From: Mycobacterium botniense
GTDB taxonomy: Bacteria; Actinomycetota; Actinomycetes; Mycobacteriales; Mycobacteriaceae
Reading direction: 5' to 3'
Assembly (NCBI RefSeq): GCF_010723305.1
Contig: NZ_BLKW01000004.1
Span: forward strand, 1,984,001-2,048,000
DNA: 64,000 nucleotides
The position numbers were made by a program, and so were the translations under genes. Within the stretch, counting starts at the first letter, position 1; every line of letters starts with the position of its first letter. This document shows, piece after piece, positions 11,286 through 15,690 of the stretch. The notes under the pieces are model-generated. The model was not told the origin of the DNA, searched no databases, and saw only the letters and a program-made list of their open reading frames with translations.

Positions 11286-13055
11286 TCAGCGAGTCGGCGT
11301 CGGTTCCGGGATCTGGGCAGACGGCGCACCCGGGGCGGGCAGCAGGGTCCGGGGGGGCGGTGCCGCGGGAGCGTCGGGTGCCGGCGGGGCGGGCACGCTG
11401 ACATCCGCCGGCACATCGCCGGTTCGCGCTGCTACCGCGGGGATCACGAACTGCGCTCCCTGTTGACCACATTCATCGGTCTGCACGGTGAGGGTCATCA
11501 CCCCGCGCATCGGGCCGTGGCGTTGCGGTTGCAACGACAACACCTGCCGGGTGATTTCGCTGTCGGGTGTGCCACCGGCGCCGACGCAGGGGAACGGCAC
11601 CGTGTCCGGCCGGGACTGCCAGGCTCCGTCACGAAAGTCCAGCACCAGCGGTTTATCTCCGCCCGAGGTGCTCGCCGTGCGATGGTCTTTGTCGTCAAGC
11701 ATGATTCCGGTGGCCACGCATCCTGTCGCTGTGCAGACCGCACGAAAAGCCCACCAGGTGCTCACATCGGGTGGCTGCGGATCAGGAGTGTCGTTGAACG
11801 TCTGCTGTGAGCGGTTGACATCTAACCGGTACAAGCCATCGAGGAGCTGTTGGGGCGAAGGCTCGGCAGGGAGGCTGGACGTCGGCACCGCGCGCGGAGC
11901 CGAAAGGTGCATCGGCCCCGTCGGGCTCGCCGCCCGGCTCGACGGTGCGCGGGCCTCGCGCATCGCCCCGGCACCGACCGCAAGTACGCCGACCAGCACG
12001 ACCAGCGCTGCGCCGACCGCCGCCCCGAGCAGCACCCAGGGCCATCTGCGCAGCCCCGGCCCCGCCCGCTGCCGGCCCGGCTCCGGTTCAGCGCCGCGAC
12101 GCTGCGACTCCGCCGATGACGGGGCGGGGCCGCCCGGCTCCCCCCGCACCTCGGTCACCGCATCGTCGGGGTAGTCGAGGACCGGCAGGAATGCCTCCGG
12201 GCCGCGATCCGCGACCCAAACGCTGGTCCGGGCGCTGAGCGCGTCGGCGAACTCCCGGCATTGGGAGAATCGGTCAACGGGGTCTTTGGCCAGTGCGGTG
12301 GCCATGACGCCGTCAAGCGGCGCAAGGCCCGGGCGCCGGTCGCTGAGCTGTGGCGGCGCCACGTTCAGATGCTGGGTGATGACGGCGACCGGGTCGGTGC
12401 CCTGAAACGGCGGTGCGCCGGTGAACAGATGAAACGCGGTGGCGGCCAACCCGTATTGGTCGGCGCTGCCGTCAAGGTCCAAACCCCTCAATTGCTCGGG
12501 TGCGGCGTAAGCGACCGCTCCGGGCGGGGGAACCTGCGGGATTGAGCAGAAGTTATCAAGACGGCGTGCTATTCCGAAGTCGGTCAAGACAATCCGTGGT
12601 TCACCCGCGCTGGGATCGGTCAGCAAGATATTGGCGGGTTTGACGGATCGGTGCAGGAGTCCGCGGTAGTGGGCGTAATCGAGTGCGTTGGCGACAGCTG
12701 CCACGATCGTCAGTACCTCGCCCGCAGGCATGCCGGATGGAAACCGTTCTCGCACAAGCTGCTCAGCGTTGGTGCCGTCGACGTAATCCATCGAGAACCA
12801 CAGCTGGCCGTGAAACTCGCCGTGGTCGTACACCGGCACGATGTGCGGGTGGTACAGCGTGGCCGAAATTTCGGTGTCGCGCATGAACCGCTGACGAAAT
12901 TCGCTGTCGGCAGTCAGCGCCGGGTGGAGGACCTTCAAGGCGACACTACGCGGCGGCCCCGGACTCTGAGCAAGGTAAACCTCACCCATGTCGCCGGAGC
13001 CCAGCTGTCGCGTAATGGTGTATCCAGCAAACGTCGCCCCGCTGGCCAACGGCAC
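11286..13055 (-). CDS. pknI: PknI-like transmembrane Ser/Thr kinase homologue, probable pseudokinase
   Basis: Receptor-type kinase homologue, 589 aa. The kinase domain is about residues 9-275, with a juxtamembrane linker, a transmembrane helix at about 338-365 and an exported C-terminal domain with several Cys (TATGCVATG, DECGQQ). The Gly loop (GSGDMGEV), ATP-anchoring Lys (VALKVL, K41), alpha-C Glu (E62) and DFG (D159) are present. The catalytic loop reads HRSVKPAN, so the HRD aspartate is Ser137 (TCC, 12645-12647). The segment before APE reads GAVAYAAPE, without the usual P+1 Thr, and the activation loop has no Thr. ATP binding may survive, but phosphotransfer is doubtful. Start GTG 13055. 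Confidence 0.9.
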   Translation of the reverse strand: MPLASGATFAGYTITRQLGSGDMGEVYLAQSPGPPRSVALKVLHPALTADSEFRQRFMRDTEISATLYHPHIVPVYDHGEFHGQLWFSMDYVDGTNAEQLVRERFPSGMPAGEVLTIVAAVANALDYAHYRGLLHRSVKPANILLTDPSAGEPRIVLTDFGIARRLDNFCSIPQVPPPGAVAYAAPEQLRGLDLDGSADQYGLAATAFHLFTGAPPFQGTDPVAVITQHLNVAPPQLSDRRPGLAPLDGVMATALAKDPVDRFSQCREFADALSARTSVWVADRGPEAFLPVLDYPDDAVTEVRGEPGGPAPSSAESQRRGAEPEPGRQRAGPGLRRWPWVLLGAAVGAALVVLVGVLAVGAGAMREARAPSSRAASPTGPMHLSAPRAVPTSSLPAEPSPQQLLDGLYRLDVNRSQQTFNDTPDPQPPDVSTWWAFRAVCTATGCVATGIMLDDKDHRTASTSGGDKPLVLDFRDGAWQSRPDTVPFPCVGAGGTPDSEITRQVLSLQPQRHGPMRGVMTLTVQTDECGQQGAQFVIPAVAARTGDVPADVSVPAPPAPDAPAAPPPRTLLPAPGAPSAQIPEPTPTR

Positions 13056-13091: not shown

Positions 13092-14159
13092 TCAAAACGG
13101 CTGCCCGCGCAGCACCACCAGGTCGGGTCGGCTCAGTACCCCGGGTCCCCGCCTGGGATCCTCGGTGTAGCACACCAAGTCGGCGGCCGCGCCGTGGTCT
13201 AAACCCGGTCGCCCCAACCAGCGGCGGGCGTCCCAGCATGCCGCACCAAGGGCTTCGGTAGGGCTCATACCGATCCCCTTGAGCGCCTCCACCTCGTCGG
13301 CGATCCGCCCGTGCGCAACCATGGTGCCGGCGTCGGTGCCGGCGTACACCCGCACCCCCGCATCCCACGCCGCGGCCATGCGTCGGTGGCACTGGGCGTA
13401 CAAGTCGCGCATGTGAGCCGCATAGGTGGGGAAACGGGTTGCCGAGTCGGCGATGCCCGGGAAGTTTTCGATGTTGATCAGGGTGGGAACTAACGCGGTG
13501 TCATGCTCGAGCATCAACGCAATGGTGTCCTCGGTGAGGCCGGTGCCGTGCTCGATACAGTCAATGCCGGCGCTGATCAGGCCGGGCAGCGCGTCTTCAC
13601 CGAAAACATGCGCCGTGACGCGAGCGCCGTGGGCGTGTGCGGCGTCGATTGCCGCCTTGAGGATGTCATCAGACCACAGGGGGGCGAGGTCGCCGATCTG
13701 CCGGTCGATCCAGTCGCCGACGAGTTTTACCCATCCGTCGCCCCGGAGCGCCTGCTCGGCCACCACCTGCGGGAGTTGCGCTTCGTCGTCGAGTTCAATC
13801 GCGAAATTGCGCGTGTACCGCCGAGGTCTTGCCAGGTGCCGGCCGGCCCGGATGATGCGCGGCAGGTCGGCGCGGCCGTCGAGGCTGCGGGTGTCAGTTG
13901 GTGAACCACAGTCACGCAGCAGCAGCGCCCCCACGTCGCGTTCGGTGGCGGCCTGGGCGGCCGCCTCGTCCAGCTCGATGGCGCCGTGCTCCCCTAGCCC
14001 CACATGACAGTGCGCGTCGACCAATCCGGGCAGGATCCAGCCGCCGTCAAAGATCGTCTGCGCGCCCGCAACCGGTTCCGCGCTGATCTGCCCCCCGACG
14101 ATCCACAGCTCAACTTCGGCTTCCTCGGGCAGCGTTAAACCGCGCAGATGACAGTGCAC
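13092..14159 (-). CDS. Amidohydrolase (imidazolonepropionase-like, Rv2915c orthologue)
   Basis: 355-aa metal-dependent hydrolase of the amidohydrolase superfamily. It has an N-terminal beta-sandwich strand, then the metal site GLVDAHCHVGLGEHG, later His residues in VTAHVFGEDAL and CIEHGTGLTED, and the catalytic Asp in YAGTDAGTM. The C-terminus returns to the beta-sandwich (AADLVCYTEDPRRG). The substrate is unknown. GTG 14159 starts the gene 7 nt from the ffh stop, so it is likely in the same transcript as ffh. pknI follows 36 bp downstream. Confidence 0.87.
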   Translation of the reverse strand: MHCHLRGLTLPEEAEVELWIVGGQISAEPVAGAQTIFDGGWILPGLVDAHCHVGLGEHGAIELDEAAAQAATERDVGALLLRDCGSPTDTRSLDGRADLPRIIRAGRHLARPRRYTRNFAIELDDEAQLPQVVAEQALRGDGWVKLVGDWIDRQIGDLAPLWSDDILKAAIDAAHAHGARVTAHVFGEDALPGLISAGIDCIEHGTGLTEDTIALMLEHDTALVPTLINIENFPGIADSATRFPTYAAHMRDLYAQCHRRMAAAWDAGVRVYAGTDAGTMVAHGRIADEVEALKGIGMSPTEALGAACWDARRWLGRPGLDHGAAADLVCYTEDPRRGPGVLSRPDLVVLRGQPF

Positions 14160-14166
14160 GGTGCGG

Positions 14167-15690
14167 CTAGTTTTTGCCCGGGAACTTCAGCGTGGACAGA
14201 TCGACATCGGCCAGCCCGGGCGGCAGCTCATCGAGGCCTTGGGGGAGATGCGACAGGTCGGGAAATCCGGCTGGGAGCGGGCCGCGTGTCTTCGGTGGTG
14301 TCGGCCCGCGCTTTTTGCCTTTCTTGCCTTTGCCGCCCTTGCGGGTCGAGCGTTTGCGGCTGATCCCGGGAAAGCCCAGGCCTCCCATCATCGACGACAT
14401 CATCTTGCGAGCCTCGAAGAAGCGGTCGACCAGTTGATTGACCTCGGCCACGGTCACGCCCGAGCCGTTGGCGATCCGCAATCGCCGCGAGGCGTTGATG
14501 ATCTTCGGGTCGGCCCGCTCCTGCGGGGTCATGCCGCGGATGATGGCTTGCAGCCGGTCGAGCTGCTTGTCGTCGATGGCGGCCAGCGCCTCTTTCATCT
14601 GGCCCGCCCCCGGCAACATCCCCAACAGGTTGCCGATCGGCCCCATCTTGCGGATGGCCACCATCTGCTCGAGAAAATCCTCCAGCGTGAGCTCACCCGA
14701 ACCGATCTTGGCGGCCGCGGCCTCGGCCTGCTGGGCGTCGAAGACCTGCTCGGCCTGCTCGATCAGGCTCAGCACATCACCCATGCCCAGGATGCGGCTG
14801 GCCATCCGATCGGGGTGGAAGATGTCGAAGTCGTCGAGTTTTTCTCCGGTAGAAGCGAAAAGAATTGGGACACCAGTTACTTCGCGCACCGACAGCGCCG
14901 CGCCGCCGCGGGCGTCGCCGTCGAGCTTGGTCAGCGCCACCCCGGTGAAGCCGACACCTTCGCGGAACGCCTCAGCGGTGGCGACGGCGTCCTGCCCGAT
15001 CATCGCGTCCAGCACAAACAGCACTTCATCAGGGTCGAGGGCATCCCGGATGGCGGCGGCCTGGGCCATCATCTCCTCGTCGACGCCCAGCCGCCCAGCG
15101 GTGTCGACGATGAGAACGTCGAACAGTTTGGCCCTGGCCTCTGCGAGCCCCGCCGAGGCGACGGCCACCGGATCACCGGGACCAGCCTCGGCGGAGGCAC
15201 CGGGATGCGGGGCGAACACCGGCACACCTGCCCGCTCGCCGACGATCTTCAACTGGTCCACCGCTGCGGGCCGCTGCAGGTCGGCGGCGACCAGCAGCGG
15301 CGTATGCCCTTGCCCGCGAAGCCACTTGGCAAGTTTGCCGGCCAACGTGGTTTTCCCTGATCCTTGCAGGCCGGCCAGCATCACCACGGTCGGCGGTGTC
15401 TTGGCAAACGCCAACTGGCGGGTCTGGCCGCCGAGGATGGTGACGAGTTCGTCGTTGACGATCTTGACGATCTGTTGCGCCGGATTGAGCGCGCGGGACA
15501 CCTCGGCGCCCTTGGCGCGGTCTTTGACCCGTCCGATGAACGTCCGCACCACCGGAAGCGAAACGTCAGCCTCCAGCAATGCCAGCCGGATCTCGCGGGC
15601 GGTGGCGTCGATATCGGCATCCGTCAACCGACCCTTGCCGCGCAGCCCCTGCAGGGCTGCGGTCAACCGGTCAGACAGCGATTCAAACAC
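14167..15690 (-). CDS. ffh: Signal recognition particle GTPase Ffh
   Basis: SRP54 homologue (507 aa) that binds signal sequences and 4.5S RNA and, with FtsY, targets membrane proteins. N domain 1-85. The G domain has GLQGSGKTTLAGKLA (P-loop), DTAGRLGVDEE, TKLDGDARGG, and the closing loop preceding FHPDRMASRILGMGDV. The methionine-rich M domain follows (MRKM-like LEQMVAIRKMGPIGNLLGMLPG, SRRLRIANGSG). The C-terminus is Lys-rich, then Pro/Gly-rich, ending TLKFPGKN. glnD lies 57 bp upstream, and the Rv2917 gene found between them in M. tuberculosis is absent. Confidence 0.97.
   Translation of the reverse strand: MFESLSDRLTAALQGLRGKGRLTDADIDATAREIRLALLEADVSLPVVRTFIGRVKDRAKGAEVSRALNPAQQIVKIVNDELVTILGGQTRQLAFAKTPPTVVMLAGLQGSGKTTLAGKLAKWLRGQGHTPLLVAADLQRPAAVDQLKIVGERAGVPVFAPHPGASAEAGPGDPVAVASAGLAEARAKLFDVLIVDTAGRLGVDEEMMAQAAAIRDALDPDEVLFVLDAMIGQDAVATAEAFREGVGFTGVALTKLDGDARGGAALSVREVTGVPILFASTGEKLDDFDIFHPDRMASRILGMGDVLSLIEQAEQVFDAQQAEAAAAKIGSGELTLEDFLEQMVAIRKMGPIGNLLGMLPGAGQMKEALAAIDDKQLDRLQAIIRGMTPQERADPKIINASRRLRIANGSGVTVAEVNQLVDRFFEARKMMSSMMGGLGFPGISRKRSTRKGGKGKKGKKRGPTPPKTRGPLPAGFPDLSHLPQGLDELPPGLADVDLSTLKFPGKN

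What the first reader, a model, noticed from the sequence alone, without database searches (positions are those of the whole stretch)
12640..12655. PknI homologue with a destroyed HRD motif: a pseudokinase
The catalytic loop reads HRSVKPAN instead of HRDxKPxN, so the proton-acceptor Asp is Ser137 (codon TCC, two changes from GAC/GAT). The P+1 loop reads GAVAYAAPE without the usual Thr, and the activation loop has no Thr for autophosphorylation. The VAxK lysine, Gly loop, DFG and the exported C-terminal domain are kept. This suggests an ATP-binding signalling scaffold. M. tuberculosis PknI, as I recall, keeps HRD, so this would be a lineage-specific loss.
Basis: partly seen in the sequence, partly recalled or inferred. 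Interest (0 to 1): 0.8.

Follow-up and report, generated by a model that had tools for sequence, protein, structure and literature searches.

The report
Kinase receptor without its catalytic residue
A mycobacterial membrane protein that looks like a signalling kinase has lost the one residue needed to transfer phosphate while keeping its ATP pocket, and related bacteria show the same kind of loss on many separate branches, which suggests the protein signals without acting as an enzyme.

Summary
The 589-residue PknI-like protein (11286-13055, minus strand) reads HRSVKPAN, with TCC at 12645-12647. Its 29-residue activation segment has no Thr and the P+1 Thr is Ala. M. tuberculosis PknI keeps HRD, but its activation segment has shrunk to 14 residues.

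"Lineage-specific loss" is too narrow. The window gene is a positional pknI (beside ffh). In 77 Mycobacterium genomes with a readable pknI there, 15 lack the Asp: 7 Ala, 4 Asn, 2 Gly, 1 Glu, 1 Ser (the window). A 92-row tree needs at least 12 changes between Asp and not-Asp, 9 forced by starred branches; a single clade is rejected. In 87 HRD-lost sequences the other motifs stay: beta3 Lys 85, catalytic-loop Asn 85, DFG Asp 86. The three close HRD-lost pairs tested have kinase-domain dN/dS 0.15-0.19.

Best reading: a selected pseudokinase receptor, no longer a phosphotransferase, probably still binding ATP. Nucleotide binding and partner are inferred. Only 15 of 77 positional genes keep all three catalytic residues and a full-length activation segment.

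The parts
11286..13055 (-). PknI-like receptor pseudokinase gene, 589 aa, GTG start
   Evidence: the ORF listing; PF00069 115.4 bits; NF052447 70.6 bits
12231..13055 (-). kinase domain, residues 1-275
   Evidence: phmmer to M. tuberculosis PknF 7naa 346.1 bits and PknI 5m07 301.7 bits (7naa named PknF); AF2 pLDDT mostly about 90 or more outside residues 141-180
12984..13001 (-). glycine-rich loop GSGDMG, residues 19-24, kept
12933..12935 (-). beta3 (VAxK) Lys41, kept
   Evidence: Lys in 85 of 87 HRD-lost rows
12876..12878 (-). alphaC Glu position, Asp60 in the window
   Evidence: Glu in 98% of the other rows of the 92-row set
12630..12653 (-). catalytic loop HRSVKPAN, residues 135-142
12645..12647 (-). 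Ser137 (TCC) in place of the catalytic-base Asp
12573..12581 (-). DFG motif, residues 159-161, kept
   Evidence: Asp in 86 of 87 HRD-lost rows
12495..12581 (-). activation segment, 29 residues, no Thr, P+1 Thr replaced by Ala
   Evidence: pLDDT 67-79 in the blocks covering residues 151-180
11961..12044 (-). predicted transmembrane segment, residues 338-365
   Evidence: hydrophobic run; helix 345-360 in the AF2 model, low confidence there
11424..11843 (-). PknI/Rv2253 dimerisation (sensor) domain, residues 405-544
   Evidence: NF052447; M. tuberculosis PknI sensor structures 5xll (405-575) and 5xlm (381-575) match
13092..14159 (-). upstream neighbour, amidohydrolase (Rv2915c-like; label recalled)
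   Evidence: PF01979; used for the synteny survey
14167..15690 (-). ffh, signal recognition particle protein
   Evidence: TIGR00959 588.7 bits
9396..11264 (-). downstream neighbour, amidohydrolase (Rv2913c-like; label recalled)
   Evidence: PF07969

Best explanation
A receptor pseudokinase. The exported C-terminal domain senses an unknown ligand and dimerises. Across the membrane, a kinase-fold domain that lacks the catalytic base but keeps the beta3 Lys, the catalytic-loop Asn and the DFG Asp binds ATP, probably with a metal, and uses the bound state as a conformational switch to dock on or allosterically steer another protein: one of the other Hanks-type kinases or an adaptor. Shown here: the residue loss, the kept ATP-site residues, repeated change at this residue across the family, purifying selection on three HRD-lost pairs, and the kept sensor and synteny. 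Inferred: no phosphotransfer, ATP binding, dimerisation in this protein, and the partner.
For: Asp137 is Ser, the P+1 Thr is Ala, and the activation loop has no Thr. In the 87 HRD-lost sequences of 228 aligned: Lys41 85, alphaC Glu 86, His135 87, Asn142 85, DFG Asp 86, APE Glu 87. On the tree, among 24 HRD-lost rows, position 137 changes at least 9 times, DFG Asp 0, Lys41 1, Asn142 2, His135 0; the median kinase column changes 4 times. Kinase-domain dN/dS of the three close HRD-lost pairs tested: 0.147, 0.164, 0.193; of 11 HRD-kept pairs: 0.119-0.251, with one at 0.532 (dS only 0.054). Sensor-domain departures from residues conserved at 90% or more: median 0 in 24 HRD-lost rows, 0 in the window. 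The AF2 kinase domain matches M. tuberculosis PknF and PknI structures (TM-score by target length 0.91-0.95).
Against: No biochemistry. Very low activity has been reported for pseudokinase domains with HRN in HER3 and JAK2 (passage of PMC9988210). Many HRD-lost proteins keep the P+1 Thr: 44 of 70 database rows and 4 of 14 positional rows other than the window, so substrate binding is not uniformly lost with the Asp. The window departs from four kinase residues conserved at 90% or more (Asp60, His78, Val156, Ser197), above the HRD-lost median of 2.5, and has Pro34 where 53 of 92 rows have Leu, so its domain may be drifting. No close relative was found (best 60-63% identity over the full length), so selection on the window's own gene could not be measured. 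Kept ATP-site residues predict binding; they do not test it.
Confidence: 0.6

Rival explanations
1. Relaxed decay: the kinase half is no longer needed, and only the membrane anchor and exported sensor domain are selected. The missing Asp is one of many lesions on the way to losing the domain.
For: 45 of 60 positional genes that keep all three catalytic residues have activation segments shorter than 29 residues. A group of 13 of 119 database proteins has lost the Lys and the first Gly of the loop, 8 of them also the DFG Asp, while keeping HRD. In 117 of 196 genomes read, no PknI-like gene follows the neighbouring amidohydrolase by my criteria. The window has four departures from conserved kinase residues.
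Against: dN/dS 0.15-0.19 over the kinase domain of three HRD-lost pairs. The ATP-site residues stay fixed while position 137 varies. The number of departures from conserved kinase residues is not raised in HRD-lost rows as a group (median 2.5 against 3.0 in HRD-kept positional rows).
Confidence: 0.21
2. Still a kinase, by a changed mechanism or at a very low rate: another acidic group or water serves as base, or a partner supplies it.
For: The other phosphotransfer residues are kept in nearly all HRD-lost rows. 44 of 70 HRD-lost database rows keep the P+1 Thr. A passage of PMC9988210 cites very low activity for HRN domains of HER3 and JAK2. Asn is the commonest replacement: 55 of 87.
Against: The P+1 Thr and activation-loop Thr are gone in the window. 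Replacement residues include Ala, Gly and Val, which offer no base.
Confidence: 0.11
3. A decoy or modulator of secreted sensor-domain proteins: the protein pairs with other PknI/Rv2253-domain proteins outside the membrane, and its cytoplasmic half only presents a site phosphorylated by another kinase.
For: The own genome has four NF052447 domains, only one on a kinase place. Residues 283-340 have pLDDT under 50 and could be a disordered phosphorylated tail.
Against: No evidence of pairing. It does not explain the fixed ATP site.
Confidence: 0.06
4. Sequencing or assembly error at the codon.
For: None found; reads were not available.
Against: Contig of 2.19 Mb and completeness 99.82%. The same residue is missing in 14 other positional genes, and other changes (P+1 Thr, Asp60) go with it.
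Confidence: 0.02

Closest known systems
PknI of Mycobacterium tuberculosis (Rv2914c; PDB 5xka, 5m06-5m09, 5xll, 5xlm)
   Same: Same architecture and same dimerisation domain; kinase fold match TM-score by target length 0.92-0.95. Same gene neighbourhood, as far as the M. tuberculosis order is recalled. Its structure was described as inactive and pseudokinase-like (Lisa et al., FEBS J 2017: recalled; the DOI tried was not held).
   Different: M. tuberculosis PknI keeps the HRD Asp but has Asn in place of the loop Lys and a 14-residue activation segment. The window has lost the Asp and keeps a 29-residue segment.
PknF of M. tuberculosis (PDB 7naa; name)
   Same: Nearest solved kinase domain by sequence, 346 bits.
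   Different: HRD, a 30-residue activation segment with several Thr and the P+1 Thr are present. No sensor comparison with PknF was made.
Bacterial pseudokinase families ActPs1-3, GLW, CP1, DYD, DLHK (review PMC12599244, passages read)
   Same: Kinase folds with a missing catalytic residue, several in actinobacteria. ActPs2 also has Asn for the HRD Asp.
   Different: The review sorts its seven families into those diverged in all three motifs and those diverged in the ATP and metal motifs. Isolated HRD loss with intact Lys and DFG is neither. PknI has 0 occurrences in its main text.
Primate PSKH2 (PMC9988210, passages); HER3 (recalled beyond that passage)
   Same: Loss of the HRD Asp with the ATP-coordinating residues kept.
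   Different: Eukaryotic; in PSKH2 confined to primates. Here the residue changes at least nine times on supported branches within one bacterial family.
MviN pseudokinase of mycobacteria (Gee et al. 2012, seen only in reference lists)
   Same: A mycobacterial membrane pseudokinase that acts by recruiting another protein (mechanism recalled).
   Different: MviN is listed with VALT and without HRD or DFG (table in PMC12599244): its ATP site is not kept.

Membership tests
PknI (PknI/Rv2253-type receptor kinase) | N-terminal Hanks kinase domain, one transmembrane segment, C-terminal PknI/Rv2253 dimerisation domain | tested here: met
PknI (PknI/Rv2253-type receptor kinase) | gene neighbourhood ffh - amidohydrolase - pknI - amidohydrolase | tested here: met
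   for the window; all four genes in 48 of 80 fetched loci. The M. tuberculosis order itself is recalled
PknI (PknI/Rv2253-type receptor kinase) | groups with M. tuberculosis PknI on a tree | tested here: inconclusive
   On the unrooted 92-row tree the window lies in a starred set of 55 rows that also holds PknF and other non-positional relatives, while M. tuberculosis PknI lies outside it with other positional genes
Active Hanks-type Ser/Thr kinase | catalytic-base Asp of HRD | tested here: not met
   Ser137
Active Hanks-type Ser/Thr kinase | beta3 Lys and DFG Asp | tested here: met
   Lys41, Asp159
Active Hanks-type Ser/Thr kinase | activation-loop Thr and P+1 Thr | tested here: not met
Active Hanks-type Ser/Thr kinase | phosphotransfer activity | not testable with these tools
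   needs biochemistry
Pseudokinase, as defined in PMC12599244 (loss of beta3 Lys, HRD Asp or DFG Asp) | at least one of the three residues missing | tested here: met
   HRD Asp missing; definition in a passage
Pseudokinase, as defined in PMC12599244 (loss of beta3 Lys, HRD Asp or DFG Asp) | no demonstrated catalytic activity | not testable with these tools
   no assay available
ActPs2 bacterial pseudokinases | beta3 Lys to Arg, HRD Asp to Asn, DFG deletion | tested here: not met
   Lys41 and DFG kept; family definition

The most novel reading that the evidence does not exclude
The positional PknI of Mycobacterium is a repeatedly evolved receptor pseudokinase: a nucleotide-reading switch whose catalysis has been switched off many times over by different lesions (catalytic Asp, activation segment, or Lys plus Gly loop and DFG), while the fold, sensor and, in the Asp-loss route, the ATP and metal site are held by selection. 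That would make a third class of bacterial pseudokinase beside the two in the 2025 review, one in which loss of activity is itself favoured.
Probability: 0.35. Interest if true: 0.75.

Novelty: new variant of a known kind. Interest (0 to 1): 0.56.

Why it matters
The review read in passages (PMC12599244) calls bacterial pseudokinases largely unexplored by experiment. A family in which the catalytic base changed at least nine times on supported branches, with intact-looking and HRD-lost copies in the same chromosomal place, is a natural series of experiments on what a kinase fold does without catalysis. It also warns that a "Ser/Thr kinase" label at this locus may mislead.

Tried and rejected
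Sequencing error: judged unlikely (see rivals). A single ancient loss shared by all HRD-lost genes: rejected (24 of 92 rows held as one clade, log-likelihood 706 lower, p-AU 1.3e-62; the group was named after a first tree was seen, and the test used a quick tree). A PknI-like partner kinase with the same sensor in the window's own genome: not found; four NF052447 places, one of them on a kinase place. The seven other own kinases that were read all have HRD; the ninth kinase match had no locus and was not read. A back-to-back dimer reading of Pro34: dropped, since the numbering to PknB is recalled and Leu is only 53 of 92 rows. One of 25 candidate stretches was a relative in the named genome collection (M. 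kyorinense).

Results against the reading: position 137 among HRD-lost rows gave 15 changes in the first tree, but that set was clustered in a way that favoured different states there. The fairer set gives 9 changes, with 16% of kinase columns as fast or faster. Two HRD rows (P0028, P0031) sit inside a starred, mostly HRN clade, so some changes may be regains. The P+1 Thr is kept in 44 of 70 HRD-lost database rows. Sensor dN/dS of the HRD-lost pairs was 0.111, 0.286 and 0.189, two of them on 95-96 codons only. All trees are quick searches with SH-aLRT support and no bootstrap. The 120 proteins are the best listed of 3317, and the genome survey was drawn partly by similarity to the window, so frequencies are not population values.

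Rows dropped: 2 of 79 positional genes (G089, G329) had no readable HRD column. Of 396 genomes searched for the neighbour, 196 were read. In 117 of the 196 no PknI-like gene was found next to it; 116 of these had at least 1000 bases of room downstream and one (G379) had 619. My regular-expression count (47 HRN, 40 HRD, 9 unread, of 120) is replaced by the alignment count. The alphaC position was mis-set and corrected from then on.

Because of the last two, odds moved slightly from the best explanation (0.62 to 0.60) to the first two rivals.

Papers: PMC12599244, PMC9988210, PMC6213207, PMC10653824 and PMC6906086: passages only, by term search; PMC5073100: term search returned no passage. Lisa et al. 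2017: recalled, the DOI tried was not held. That I saw no report of repeated Asp loss in PknI rests on listings of searches of an open-access library; papers outside it were not searched.

Full report
Observation. The minus-strand ORF 11286-13055 encodes 589 residues. Residues 135-142 read HRSVKPAN; residue 137 is TCC at 12645-12647. The glycine loop, Lys41, DFG and APE are present. The activation segment has 29 residues and no Thr, and the P+1 position is Ala. A hydrophobic stretch at 338-365 precedes a PknI/Rv2253 dimerisation domain at 405-544. One departure was missed: the alphaC Glu is Asp60, found in no other of the 87 HRD-lost rows.

What the gene is. The neighbours are ffh (TIGR00959) and two amidohydrolases. 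This is the place that pknI holds in M. tuberculosis (gene order recalled). Of 80 loci fetched around PknI-like hits, 48 hold all four genes. The kinase domain matches M. tuberculosis PknF (7naa, 346 bits) and PknI (5m07, 302 bits). The AF2 model, built on 50 of the 120 listed proteins, is confident for the kinase and sensor domains, weaker at 151-180, and below 50 at 283-340. Foldseek puts PknF and PknI first. I call it a positional pknI: the 92-row tree does not join it directly to M. tuberculosis PknI.

Is it one lineage's loss? No. In 196 genomes whose neighbouring amidohydrolase was read, 79 carry a PknI-like gene next to it. Of the 77 with a readable HRD, 62 have Asp and 15 do not: Ala 7, Asn 4, Gly 2, Glu 1, Ser 1. 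Among 119 further PknI-like proteins (the best listed), 70 lack Asp: Asn 49, Ala 12, Ser 3, Val 2, Lys 2, Gly 1, Glu 1. On a tree of 92 rows built without position 137 and the activation segment, at least 12 changes between Asp and not-Asp are needed and 9 are forced by starred branches. A first tree of 117 rows, kinase columns without position 137, gave 13 and 8. Among 45 rows (44 positional genes and the M. tuberculosis PknI chain) 7 changes are needed. One clade of all HRD-lost rows is rejected, p-AU 1.3e-62. Parsimony cannot tell loss from regain, and two HRD rows nest in a mostly HRN clade, so some changes may be regains. That Asp is ancestral is established knowledge of protein kinases. 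The window's nearest relatives on that tree (support 87, not starred) are Ala/Gly genes and a clade most of whose members lost the Lys; whether its loss is shared with the Ala/Gly genes is unresolved. The Ala codon in G071, G191 and G319 is GCC, one base from the window's TCC, which fits an Ala intermediate (inference).

Selection or decay? In the 87 HRD-lost rows of 228 aligned, the rest of the catalytic set is nearly fixed: His 87, Arg 86, beta3 Lys 85, alphaC Glu 86, Asn142 85, DFG Asp 86, APE Glu 87. In the 24 HRD-lost rows of the 92-row tree, position 137 changes at least 9 times while DFG Asp and His135 change 0 times, Lys41 once and Asn142 twice; the median kinase column changes 4 times. 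The three close HRD-lost pairs tested give kinase-domain dN/dS 0.147-0.193, within the range of 11 HRD-kept pairs (0.119-0.251, one outlier at 0.532). The sensor domain of HRD-lost rows departs from conserved residues no more than that of HRD-kept positional rows (median 0 against 0.5). This is what is expected if the base is free to go while nucleotide and metal binding are not. Against it, the window itself has four departures from conserved kinase residues (group median 2.5), and its own dN/dS could not be measured for want of a close relative.

Other routes at the same place. Of 60 positional genes with all three catalytic residues, 45 have activation segments shorter than 29 residues (10 to 26), against 30 residues in all 28 non-positional PknI-like relatives examined. 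M. tuberculosis PknI has 14. A third group, 13 of 119 database proteins, keeps HRD but has lost Lys41 and the first Gly of the loop, 8 of them also the DFG Asp. Only 15 of 77 positional genes keep all three residues and a segment of 29 or more. Whether a short segment abolishes activity is not tested here. Conversely, 44 of 70 HRD-lost database rows keep the P+1 Thr, so the lesions do not always go together.

Mechanism. Shown: residue losses, repeated change, purifying selection in relatives, kept sensor and fold. Inferred: a ligand-responsive dimer outside, an ATP-bound and catalytically silent domain inside that docks on a partner. In the window's genome the seven other kinases that were read all carry HRD. 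None of the other eight PF00069 places coincides with a PknI-type sensor, but three other sensor-domain frames exist. The partner is therefore likelier to be a kinase of another type or a non-kinase.

Relation to the known. By the definition in PMC12599244 (loss of Lys, HRD Asp or DFG Asp) this is a pseudokinase. That review's classes are divergence in all three motifs, or in the ATP and metal motifs; isolated HRD loss with both other motifs intact fits neither. Its main text does not name PknI. M. tuberculosis PknI was, as I recall, described as inactive and pseudokinase-like in 2017, so an inactive PknI is not new in itself. The repeated loss of the catalytic base with a conserved ATP site is what I saw in none of the listings of searches.

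Noticed in passing
positional pknI loci, e.g. among L040-L119: Activation segments of positional pknI genes are shortened (10-26 residues) in 45 of 60 genes that keep all three catalytic residues; the 28 non-positional relatives examined all have 30.
   Followed up: partly
P0003, P0007, P0011, P0074, P0086, P0095, P0110-P0112 and similar: A group of 13 PknI-like database proteins keeps HRD but has Arg or His for the beta3 Lys and has lost the first Gly of the loop; 8 of 13 also lack the DFG Asp: the reverse pattern of inactivation.
   Followed up: partly
12876-12878: The alphaC Glu is Asp in the window, the only such row among 87 HRD-lost rows.
   Followed up: partly
L041 5318-8829 and L042 4851-8402: Two tandem pknI-like genes, both with HRD, beside the ffh-linked amidohydrolase in genomes G251 and G083.
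   Followed up: no
L280, L281, L283: Three more PknI/Rv2253 sensor-domain frames in the window's genome, none on a kinase place: possible extracellular partners.
   Followed up: no
L043 (G282) and L046 (G030): HRN-bearing PknI-like genes away from the ffh-linked place, so the Asp-less form also exists at another location.
   Followed up: no
117 of 196 genomes read, e.g. L191-L250: No PknI-like gene follows the Rv2915c-like gene by my criteria; gene absence or relocation was not resolved.
   Followed up: no
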